A DNA stretch of 64,000 nucleotides from Bacillus sp. (in: firmicutes) (lineage in GTDB: Bacteria; Bacillota; Bacilli; Bacillales; Bacillaceae_J): positions 186,001 through 250,000 of the forward strand of contig DUSF01000035.1 in NCBI GenBank assembly GCA_012842745.1, in the 5' to 3' direction. Below the pieces are notes generated by a model, which did not search any database, was not told the DNA's origin, and saw nothing but the letters and a program-made list of their open reading frames with translations. The translations under genes and the position numbers were made by a program. Each line of letters begins with the position of its first letter. The first letter of the stretch is position 1. Positions 5,638 to 37,080 of the stretch are shown here, piece by piece.

Positions 5638-5940
5638 GAAAATTTTATAGACATAAGCTATGAAGGAACATAGTACGTTACCTCTCAACATGTAGGGAGA
5701 AGATGCCGTAGACTGCAAGCATCTTTATGATTGAAGTAGCCGAATTCACTCTGGAGCTGATACTTGGACCTGAAGATTGACCGGAATCACGAAAACTGGT
5801 CATTCCAAAAGTAAAGGTATTCCGGTTAGAAAACCGTTATTTGAATGAAGTGAACAGTACGTAATATGTGCTGTTAATTAGGGTGGTACCGCGAATGATA
5901 AGCTTTCGTCCCTTTATTGGGATTGAAGGCTTTTTTTATT
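5638..5940 (+). promoter_or_regulatory. T-box leader (tRNA-Phe sensing) of pheST
   Basis: The canonical T-box AGGGTGGTACCGCG lies at 5880-5893. It is followed by a terminator hairpin at 5900-5937 (AAGC-TTC-TCCC pairing with GGGA-GAA-GCTT) ending in T7. A stem I region with AGTAGCCGAATTCACT offers TTC (5745-5747) as the specifier, a Phe codon, which fits the gene downstream. Uncharged tRNA-Phe is expected to stabilise the antiterminator and allow pheST transcription. The leader accounts for the whole 380-base gap before pheS. Confidence 0.92.
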
Positions 5941-30188: not shown

Positions 30189-30413
30189 TTGAAGGAAAAT
30201 AACTACCAACCGAAGCCGCTACTTACAAAGAGAGAAAAAGAGGTATTTGAGCTTTTAGTACAGGACAAAACAACGAAAGAAATTGCAGAGGAGCTTTTTA
30301 TAAGTGAAAAAACAGTTCGTAACCATATTTCGAATGCCATGCAAAAGCTTGGAGTTAAGGGGCGCTCCCAAGCAGTCGTGGAACTCCTTAGAATGGGGGA
30401 ACTAGAACTATAG
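30189..30413 (+). CDS. gerE: Spore germination/coat regulator GerE
   Basis: 74-residue LuxR-type DNA-binding protein consisting of the HTH domain alone: LTKREKEVFELLVQDKTTKE, IAEELFISEKTVRNHISNAM and QKLGVKGRSQAVVELLRMGE. GerE is the last regulator of the mother-cell cascade and controls late coat genes. TTG start 30189 follows AAGGAGGG. Same length as B. subtilis GerE, and a clean sigma-K promoter lies upstream. Confidence 0.96.
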   Translation: MKENNYQPKPLLTKREKEVFELLVQDKTTKEIAEELFISEKTVRNHISNAMQKLGVKGRSQAVVELLRMGELEL

Positions 30414-30417
30414 TACG

Positions 30418-30456
30418 TGCCGGCTTTCATAATTGGGAGCCGGCATCGTTTCTTTC
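30418..30456 (+). terminator. Terminator of gerE
   Basis: TGCCGGCT (30418-30425) / AGCCGGCA (30438-30445), followed by TCGTTTCTTT. Confidence 0.75.
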
Positions 30457-30533
30457 AGTTTTTCCGATTTAATTATAACTATCCTTTTAATATAATGAAT
30501 AGTAACACGATTAGGAAAAAAGGGGCAGCGATT

Positions 30534-32036
30534 TTGAAAACTATTAATCTACTATCTTTATTAAGTGCAAAAGATGATCTGAATGCAATGAATTTTGCAA
30601 AATACATCGAACAATTTGGCATTAATCCTAAAATCAGAGCAGGCGAAATTGAAGATATTGAAGCGCTGGTTGATGAATTTATGAAAAGAGGAAATCAATT
30701 CGATATTCTCAACCATTATTATGTTGGATTTACGATTAAACAAATTGGGAAAGAATTTGACCTACTAAGAATCGGTGAGAATAGTATCATTAATATTGAG
30801 TTAAAGCTAATAAGTACGGAAGAGAAAATCATAAAGCAGCTTGTGCAAAATCAACATTATTTAAAATTTCTTGATGTTGATGTTTACAGTTTCACCTACA
30901 TTTCCGCAACAAAGAAACTCTATGCACTTGTCGGTCCGCAAGAAATCAAAGAAGTGGAATTTGAGGTTTTAATTGAAAAATTAAAAGAACAAATAATAAA
31001 AGAAATTGATGATCTTGATAATTTATTTGATCCAACCAATTATATAGTTTCGCCATTCAACTCAACTGATGCCTTCATTGAAGATAAGTATTTTCTAAGT
31101 GCGCAGCAGAGTACATTTAAAAGGGAAATTATCCAATTAACACCGATGGAACAGTCAATTTTTATTGCGATTAAAGGTGGATCTGGATCCGGAAAAACAC
31201 TGTTAACTTACGATATCGCAAAAGAATATATGAGACAGTCGAAAAAGGTGCTCATTTTTAATTGTGGAAAATTAAATAATGGACATGTTACATTGAAAAC
31301 TCACTATCATTGGTCAATTGAGGCGATTAGTAACTTTAGCGAATACGACGATCATTCAGAAATGGATATTGAGCAATATGAATTAATCATATTCGATGAA
31401 GCTCAAAGAATATATAAAAATAAATTTTTAAAATTAACAAATTTGCTTCAACAACTCAAAATCAAATGCATTTTTTCTTATGATCCTAACCAATGCCTTA
31501 CTGCGTTAGAAATTGAAAATAATATCCCTAAATTAATTGAGGAAACTTTAAATCCTTATCAATATGAATTAACAACAATCATTAGACATAACAAAGAAAT
31601 TCATGCGTTTATTAATAAGTTATTTGATTTATCAAAGCACGCCAAAATCGAGAATTATTCAGACATCAGTATTCAGTATTTTTCCTTGAAGGGTGCGACA
31701 ACAAGCTACTTACAATCATTACAAAAAGAGGGCTGGAAAGTCATTGATTACACCGAAACAAGGTATATTGAACACCCCGATAATGATCATATCATTACAA
31801 CAGGGGTAAATTCCCATGATGGAATCGGTCAAGAACTTGATTGTGTTGTGGCTGTCATTGATGAATCTTTTTATTACAAACCAAATCACAAGCTGTCCAC
31901 AAAAGATTTAGGGAAACAAATGTACTATCAGCCGACGCGAATGTTATATCAAAACATTAGTCGTACGAAAAAAAAGCTGCAAATTGTCATCTATAATAAT
32001 CCCGATGTTTTAGATGAGATTTTAAAGATTTTATAG
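30534..32036 (+). CDS. PD-(D/E)XK nuclease fused to DUF2075-like helicase/ATPase
   Basis: 500-residue two-part protein, not part of the core gene order. Residues 50-130 carry a PD-(D/E)XK-like pattern: Asp76 in KEFDLL and Glu89-x-Lys91 in NIELKL. Residues 205-490 are a superfamily 1-type ATPase: Walker A GGSGSGKT (215-222), Walker B LIIFDEAQ (284-291), an Arg motif TTIIRHN, GQELDCVVAVID (432-443) and Arg477 in NISRTKKKL. This matches the DUF2075 / Schlafen group 3 helicase-like family. TTG start 30534 has AAAGGGG upstream; a longer frame begins inside the gerE terminator. Codons look AT-richer than the neighbours. Function is inferred: DNA or RNA cleavage, perhaps antiphage. Confidence 0.75.
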   Translation: MKTINLLSLLSAKDDLNAMNFAKYIEQFGINPKIRAGEIEDIEALVDEFMKRGNQFDILNHYYVGFTIKQIGKEFDLLRIGENSIINIELKLISTEEKIIKQLVQNQHYLKFLDVDVYSFTYISATKKLYALVGPQEIKEVEFEVLIEKLKEQIIKEIDDLDNLFDPTNYIVSPFNSTDAFIEDKYFLSAQQSTFKREIIQLTPMEQSIFIAIKGGSGSGKTLLTYDIAKEYMRQSKKVLIFNCGKLNNGHVTLKTHYHWSIEAISNFSEYDDHSEMDIEQYELIIFDEAQRIYKNKFLKLTNLLQQLKIKCIFSYDPNQCLTALEIENNIPKLIEETLNPYQYELTTIIRHNKEIHAFINKLFDLSKHAKIENYSDISIQYFSLKGATTSYLQSLQKEGWKVIDYTETRYIEHPDNDHIITTGVNSHDGIGQELDCVVAVIDESFYYKPNHKLSTKDLGKQMYYQPTRMLYQNISRTKKKLQIVIYNNPDVLDEILKIL

Positions 32037-32108
32037 GTGATATGTCTGTTTTTCAAACCATATTATAAAAGTCGGCTTTACTTTGACATGGGATAATTGG
32101 GTTCATTG

Positions 32109-32117
32109 TGGTATAAT
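32109..32117 (+). promoter_or_regulatory. Extended -10 promoter of racE
   Basis: TG-G-TATAAT at 32109-32117, 70 bases before the racE start. A TTGACA at 32083 is 23 bp away, too far to be its -35. Confidence 0.6.
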
Positions 32118-32187
32118 ACTTCATTGGGAAATAATATTTAATATAAAATTGATTATAATTTTTATTACAAAATGGGGCGATTAAGCT

Positions 32188-32985
32188 TTGAATAGACCAA
32201 TTGGTGTAATTGATTCAGGTGTTGGTGGATTAACAGTTGCGAAAGAGATTATGAGACAGCTGCCAAAAGAAGAAATTATTTATTTAGGAGATACAGCACG
32301 TTGTCCTTACGGTTCAAGGCCTGTGGAAGAAGTCAAGAAATTTACGTGGGAATTAACTAATCATTTATTAAACTATAACATTAAAATGTTAGTTATTGCA
32401 TGTAATACAGCGACAGCACTTGTGTTAGACGATATAAGAGCTACCATTACTATACCTGTCGTAGGTGTTATCTATCCAGGGGCAAGAACAGCTCTAAAGG
32501 TAACGAAAAATAATCATATCGGTGTCATCGGAACCGTCGGCACGATTAGAAGCGGCTCTTATGAACAAGCCTTGAAAAGTATAAATCATCATGTGGAAGT
32601 AGAAAGTCTTGCCTGTCCATCATTTGTGCCGATTGTTGAAAGTGGCAATTATGAAGATGAAGATGCTAGAAATATTGTCAAGGAATCATTAGCGCCATTA
32701 AAAGTCCATGATATTGATACACTTATATTGGGGTGTACCCATTATCCAATCCTTCGACCTGTGATTCAACAAGTTATGGGTGAAAAAGTGAAACTGATTA
32801 GTTCTGGGGACGAAACTGCTAGGGAAGTTAGTACTCTTTTACATCATGCTAGTATGTTGGTTACTGAGGATAGAATACCAAATCATTTATTTTTAACAAC
32901 AGGGCCTAAGGAAATTTTTCAACATATTGCTTCAAGGGTATTTGAACACCCGATTGAAAATGTCCAATCGATTACATTATCATAA
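32188..32985 (+). CDS. racE: Glutamate racemase
   Basis: Interconverts L- and D-glutamate, supplying D-Glu for peptidoglycan. 265 residues, the normal length. N-terminal [19 protein letters not shown] and the two catalytic cysteines in [11 protein letters not shown] and [13 protein letters not shown], with [13 protein letters not shown] binding substrate. TTG start 32188 after GGGGCGATTAAG. Bacilli can have two copies; position before gerM and rph points to racE rather than yrpC. Confidence 0.95.
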
Positions 32986-36287: not shown

Positions 36288-36361
36288 GCGGGTGTAGTTT
36301 AATGGTAAAACTTCAGCCTTCCAAGCTGATGTCGTGGGTTCGATTCCCATCACCCGCTCCA
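36288..36361 (+). tRNA. tRNA-Gly (anticodon TCC)
   Basis: Acceptor arms GCGGGTG / CACCCGC, anticodon loop CTTCCAA giving TCC, TPsiC loop GGTTCGATTCC. Reads Gly GGA/GGG. The CCA end is encoded (TCCA at 36358-36361). Confidence 0.96.
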
Positions 36362-36378
36362 AATGAATTTCATACTAT

Positions 36379-36452
36379 GTCCCAGTAGCTCAGCCGGATA
36401 GAGCATACGCCTTCTAAGCGTACGGTCGGGAGTTCGAATCTCTCCTGGGACG
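36379..36452 (+). tRNA. tRNA-Arg (anticodon TCT)
   Basis: Acceptor arms GTCCCAG / CTGGGAC, anticodon stem TACGC / GCGTA with loop CTTCTAA giving TCT, and AGTTCGAATCT in the T arm. Reads Arg AGA/AGG. The discriminator G is followed by CTC, so CCA is not encoded and must be added by CCA-adding enzyme. 17 bases after tRNA-Gly. Confidence 0.95.
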
Positions 36453-36757: not shown

Positions 36758-37080
36758 CAAATATGAAAAACGTTGACGAGGAAAAGTAATCTCAAGAACG
36801 GTATCTACAGAGAGCCGGTGGTGCTGGAAACCGGTGATACCCCTGATGGTGAACTCGCCTCTGAGTATCAATCTGAACGATTTCATGCTAGTAGGATTGG
36901 TCGAGTGTTTTAAATCACTCGTTACAAAAAAAGAGCGGAGCAATGTTGTATTTTGTTGTTCATTGTCGCTCATGAGGTAATGCTCTGAAAGGAGTATTGC
37001 AATTTAGGGTGGTATCGTGGAAAGTTAAACCTTTTCACCCCTTTGCTTTCGGGCTATTATGGGGTGAGAAGGTTTTTTGT
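36758..37080 (+). promoter_or_regulatory. T-box leader (tRNA-Leu sensing) of the ilv-leu operon
   Basis: T-box AGGGTGGTATCGTGG at 37006-37020, followed by a perfect 14-bp terminator stem AACCTTTTCACCCC (37028-37041) / GGGGTGAGAAGGTT (37061-37074) with T6. In stem I the sequence GGTGAACTCGCCT offers CTC (36854-36856), a Leu codon, as specifier. Uncharged tRNA-Leu should permit read-through into ilvB. The leader has the same specifier as the B. subtilis ilv-leu leader. Confidence 0.92.

What the first reader, a model, noticed from the sequence alone, without database searches (positions are those of the whole stretch)
30534..32036. Nuclease-helicase fusion between gerE and racE: candidate single-gene defence system
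The 500-residue protein joins a PD-(D/E)XK-like nuclease pattern (Asp76, Glu89-x-Lys91) to a DUF2075/Schlafen-group-3-like ATPase with complete Walker A and B and an Arg motif. It sits as one extra gene with its own weak promoter inside a conserved sporulation/cell-wall region and looks AT-richer than its neighbours. From memory, the staphylococcal Nhi (nuclease-helicase immunity) protein is also a DUF2075-type nuclease-helicase that acts alone against phages. Similarity to Nhi itself was not tested.
Basis: partly seen in the sequence, partly recalled or inferred. Interest (0 to 1): 0.7.

Follow-up and report, generated by a model that had tools for sequence, protein, structure and literature searches.

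The report
Single-gene Nhi/AbiO-type phage-defence nuclease-helicase

Summary
ORF 30534-32036 (TTG start, 500 aa) matches the PADLOC models AbiO (E 1.6e-165) and Nhi (E 8e-159) over its whole length; the two models do not separate members of this family. An AlphaFold model of residues 1-160 (pLDDT 94) has the PD-(D/E)XK core, with E38, D76, E89-x-K91 and Q102 invariant or nearly so among 19-21 relatives. Residues 164-500 form a complete SF1 (Schlafen-group-3/RecD2/UvrD-like) helicase. The gene is a lone accessory insertion between the gerE terminator and racE. All five comparison genomes of its genus or family with gerE and racE at this site lack it there; two of the six close relatives have 87% and 78% copies at other loci. 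Synonymous divergence from the 87% copy (dS 0.65) is far below that of racE (dS 2.7), so the gene moved horizontally; dN/dS is about 0.1. About 3% of sampled Bacilli carry a member; others lie on plasmids and prophages. Most likely it is a single-gene anti-phage nuclease-helicase triggered during phage DNA replication, as reported for staphylococcal Nhi. No phage assay was possible. New member of a known kind; low interest.

The parts
30417..30446 (+). gerE transcription terminator, left boundary of the insertion
   Evidence: 13-pair stem with T tail; homology with the empty sites of relatives ends at about 30455
30456..32166 (+). accessory insertion between gerE and racE; right edge uncertain, somewhere within 32037-32166
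   Evidence: Homology to nhi-free relatives stops at 30455 and resumes at 32167 (G003); homology to nhi copies at other loci starts at 30457 and ends at the stop codon region
30491..30496 (+). candidate -10 element TATAAT of the nhi promoter
   Evidence: TATAAT aligns in window, L009, L010 and L011 upstream regions; consensus only, no -35 found
30534..32036 (+). Nhi/AbiO-family nuclease-helicase gene, TTG start, 500 aa
   Evidence: PADLOC AbiO E 1.6e-165, Nhi E 8.2e-159; N-terminus conserved in family; dN/dS about 0.1
30534..31013 (+). PD-(D/E)XK-type nuclease domain, residues 1-160 (E38, D76, E89, K91, Q102)
31023..32033 (+). SF1 helicase domain, residues 164-500 (Q192, K221, D288-E289, S315-x-D317, R351, G432-Q-E434, R477)
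   Evidence: Pfam PF09848 E 3.6e-11; invariant motifs; fold matches to SLFN11, RecD2, UvrD
30189..30413 (+). gerE-like sporulation regulator, left neighbour (context, not part of the system)
32188..32985 (+). racE glutamate racemase, right neighbour (context, not part of the system)
   Evidence: NCBIfam E 2e-127

Best explanation
This is a chromosomal member of the Nhi/AbiO family of single-gene anti-phage enzymes. SHOWN by computation: full-length family match, predicted PD-(D/E)XK nuclease fold with its catalytic residues conserved, complete SF1 helicase motifs, purifying selection, patchy distribution, and horizontal movement as a lone gene. INFERRED from the literature on staphylococcal Nhi: the protein is made from its own promoter, recognises a structure formed during phage DNA replication (ssDNA with phage SSB), unwinds the DNA with its helicase and nicks or degrades it with its nuclease, and so blocks phage replication.
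For: PADLOC AbiO 549 bits and Nhi 527 bits over residues 1-500, the same two models being matched by nine other members. Pfam SLFN-g3_helicase above its cut-off. Invariant E38/D76/E89/K91/Q102/Y109 and SF1 motifs in 19 members, upheld in a second set of 21. Nuclease-domain model pLDDT 94; nearly all of its PDB matches are PD-(D/E)XK enzymes (ACE1/Cas4, Hjc, BpuSI, AddAB, Can2). Helicase matches SLFN11, RecD2 and UvrD, Z 16-19. Absent from the site in relatives; 13 of 399 Bacilli carry the family; 23 viral contigs and 83 plasmid records (some matches partial) carry relatives. dS to the closest copy 0.65 against 2.69 for racE. Literature: Nhi is a single-gene nuclease-helicase with DNA nicking and unwinding, linked to phage SSB (PMC12904381; PMC10732053).
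Against: No phage assay exists for this protein. It is only about 30-50% identical to plasmid, prophage and many other Bacilli members, so specificity may differ. The SERP2475 sequence itself was not available for direct comparison, only the library model of the family. The gene is stably resident next to rnhC in several Ureibacillus-like genomes, which would also fit a host function.
Confidence: 0.87

Rival explanations
1. It acts by abortive infection, as the AbiO name implies: activation damages host and phage DNA alike and kills the infected cell.
For: AbiO model scores slightly above Nhi for this protein (549 vs 527 bits). Another SSB-triggered nuclease-helicase, Hna, acts by abortive infection (PMC13381803).
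Against: AbiO and Nhi models match all ten members tested with similar scores, so the score difference says nothing about outcome. Nhi is reported to protect without abortive infection (PMC11811056).
Confidence: 0.25
2. It is a host DNA-repair nuclease-helicase, not a defence gene.
For: Helicase half resembles RecD2 and UvrD; fixed next to rnhC in three Ureibacillus-like genomes; strong purifying selection.
Against: Present as a full-length gene in only 4 of 61 relatives and 13 of 399 Bacilli; gained by horizontal transfer; carried by phages and plasmids.
Confidence: 0.06
3. It mainly restricts plasmids or competing prophages rather than lytic phages; prophage-borne members suggest superinfection exclusion.
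For: Relatives in phage/prophage records and viral contigs.
Against: This copy is a lone chromosomal gene with no mobile-element genes beside it; characterised Nhi acts on staphylococcal phages (PMC12904381).
Confidence: 0.12

Closest known systems
Nhi (nuclease-helicase immunity, SERP2475), Staphylococcus epidermidis
   Same: Single gene; N-terminal PD-(D/E)XK-like nuclease plus SF1/DUF2075 helicase; full-length model match.
   Different: Different host genus; isolated chromosomal insertion between housekeeping genes; trigger and target phages unknown. Direct sequence identity to SERP2475 not measured.
AbiO, Lactococcus
   Same: Full-length model match, best score of all PADLOC models.
   Different: AbiO is classed as abortive infection; here the outcome is unknown. 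The PADLOC models do not separate AbiO from Nhi.
pXO1-133 homologue family (Nhi of the Bacillus cereus group)
   Same: Assigned to Nhi in a survey (PMC11811056); a streptococcal prophage relative of this protein is annotated pXO1-133.
   Different: Those are plasmid-borne; this one is chromosomal. The plasmid was not fetched.
Schlafen group 3 / SLFN11 helicase domain
   Same: Helicase fold (Foldseek E 2e-9; VIA Z 16.2, rmsd 3.9, 268 aligned).
   Different: The nuclease half is PD-(D/E)XK, not the Schlafen core domain.
Hna, Hachiman, Gabija
   Same: Nuclease plus helicase anti-phage logic; phage SSB as trigger for Hna and Hachiman (PMC13381803).
   Different: Hna has an N-terminal SF2 helicase with a C-terminal nuclease; Hachiman and Gabija need two genes.

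Membership tests
Nhi | Full-length match to the Nhi protein model | tested here: met
   PDLC02372 E 8.2e-159, model positions 1-469 of 470
Nhi | PD-(D/E)XK-like nuclease domain with intact catalytic residues | tested here: met
   E38, D76, E89, K91, Q102 conserved; fold
Nhi | SF1/DUF2075 (Schlafen group 3) helicase domain with Walker A and B | tested here: met
   PF09848 43.4 bits vs cut-off 24; motifs invariant; fold
Nhi | Works as a single gene | tested here: met
   Flanks are conserved housekeeping genes and neighbours differ between most copies, so there is no conserved partner gene; that it acts alone is inferred from this
Nhi | Anti-phage activity, DNA nicking and unwinding, dependence on phage SSB | not testable with these tools
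   Needs bench work
AbiO | Full-length match to the AbiO protein model | tested here: met
   PDLC02350 E 1.6e-165, positions 1-467 of 468
AbiO | Abortive-infection phenotype | not testable with these tools
   Needs bench work
Host core DNA-repair helicase | Present at a conserved site in most relatives | tested here: not met
   Full-length in 4 of 61 genomes including the own genome; missing from this site in G001, G002, G003, G005, G006

The most novel reading that the evidence does not exclude
This chromosomal Bacillaceae/Caryophanaceae clade of Nhi/AbiO proteins moves between chromosomal sites as a bare 1.6-kb gene-plus-promoter unit without recognisable transposase, terminal repeats or target duplication, and may use a different trigger from staphylococcal Nhi.
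Probability: 0.15. Interest if true: 0.35.

Novelty: new member of a known kind. Interest (0 to 1): 0.2.

Why it matters
It adds a chromosomal Bacillaceae representative to a known defence family and gives a clear empty/occupied site comparison showing that such single-gene systems settle between conserved housekeeping genes. It also shows that the AbiO and Nhi database models describe one continuous family. For a specialist this is routine annotation.

Tried and rejected
Longer start at GTG 30417: rejected, since relatives start at the TTG-equivalent position and the extra frame overlaps the gerE terminator. Foreign origin from AT content: weak, because GC3 is normal. Transposon ends: no terminal inverted repeats or target-site duplication found around 30400-32250, and alignment of the right flank with empty sites did not exceed shuffled controls in any relative, so the right edge stays uncertain. 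A sequence search of the PDB found nothing useful. NCBIfam and PHROGs have no specific model for the protein. Fold searching the whole protein is dominated by the helicase, so the nuclease domain was modelled alone. The original Nhi paper (Cell Host Microbe 2022) is not in the library; reviews and citing papers were used. A check of L009's neighbour gene in the own genome found only a 50% homologue, so the reciprocal empty site was not pursued.

Full report
OBSERVATION. The open reading frame 30534-32036 encodes 500 residues from a TTG codon preceded by AAAAAAGGGG. The frame is open back to GTG 30417, but all close relatives share the N-terminus M(K/R)xINLxSL, which fixes the start at 30534. 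E38 and Q102, the other positions expected in a PD-(D/E)XK site, are also conserved.

IDENTITY. PADLOC-DB returns AbiO (E 1.6e-165) and Nhi (E 8.2e-159), each over the whole protein. Ten members, from Bacilli, Pantoea and a Helicobacter prophage, match both models with similar scores, so the two names cover one family. Pfam finds the Schlafen group 3 helicase domain above its cut-off. NCBIfam and PHROGs have no specific model.

STRUCTURE. The full-length AlphaFold model has mean pLDDT 85.3. Residues 1-160 alone reach 94.3 and show helix 36-51, strands 62-68, 73-81 and 84-91, helix 96-113 and strand 116-123, which is the alpha-beta-beta-beta-alpha-beta PD-(D/E)XK core; D76, E89 and K91 lie on the second and third strands. 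PDB matches are individually weak (best Foldseek E 4.5e-5; VIA Z up to 6.5) but nearly all are PD-(D/E)XK nucleases: ACE1/Cas4, Hjc resolvase, BpuSI, AddAB, Can2/Cdn1, bunyavirus endonuclease. The C-terminal two thirds match SF1 helicases: UvrD Z 19.1 (289 aligned, 4.1 A), RecD2 Z 16.6, SLFN11 Z 16.2.

GENOMIC SETTING. The left neighbour is a gerE-like regulator with its own terminator (30417-30446), the right neighbour racE. In five comparison genomes of the same genus or family (G001, G002, G003, G005, G006) gerE and racE stand together without this gene. In the clearest case (G003) homology stops at 30455 and resumes at 32167, while homology to the nhi copy of Calidifontibacillus oryziterrae begins at 30457. 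Thus the left edge is defined to a base or two and the right edge lies within 32037-32166. C. oryziterrae and Schinkia azotoformans carry the gene at other, unrelated chromosomal sites. No transposon ends were found. In three Ureibacillus-like genomes the gene sits at one conserved site by rnhC, so it can also be inherited stably.

HORIZONTAL MOVEMENT. The genomes most similar in racE and other core genes are G002 and G003, but the closest nhi is in G004. Third-position identity with G004 is 0.72 for nhi and 0.45-0.49 for six core genes. dS is 0.65 for nhi and 2.69, near saturation, for racE. The tree groups the window with G004 at high support (100/99). dN/dS of about 0.1 shows that the protein is kept functional.

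DISTRIBUTION. 4 of 61 genomes, the own genome included, have a full-length gene; 13 of 399 sampled Bacilli have a family match. Relatives occur in 83 plasmid records, some of them partial, four phage records and 23 viral contigs.

MECHANISM. From published work, Nhi is a single-gene nuclease-helicase that nicks and unwinds DNA and whose activity depends on phage SSB; [quoted passage not shown] PMC10732053). It is described as non-abortive (PMC11811056). The same mode is the best guess here, but trigger, target and outcome are inferred only.

VERDICT. It is a new member of a known kind that standard defence-finding software would annotate.

Noticed in passing
L016 2500-3165 (genome G001): The same gerE-racE spacer in a same-genus genome holds a 12.8-copy tandem array of a 52-bp unit containing GGGTGTCAATCACCC; exact matches to a 29-base part of the unit occur only there in that genome; no Rfam match.
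   Followed up: partly
window 5651-5916 and 36764-37045: Two T-box leaders; the second precedes the ilvB-like gene at 37077.
   Followed up: no
window 36288-36452: Two tRNA genes about 4 kb downstream of the insertion, not the insertion site.
   Followed up: no
L057 3998-5479: A relative lies near a phage DNA transposase gene in a Helicobacter pullorum prophage record, so the family reaches Campylobacterota.
   Followed up: no
L011, L045, L047: nhi is adjacent to rnhC (RNase HIII) in three Ureibacillus-like genomes, two of them also sharing a LysM/CAP-domain gene on the other side.
   Followed up: partly
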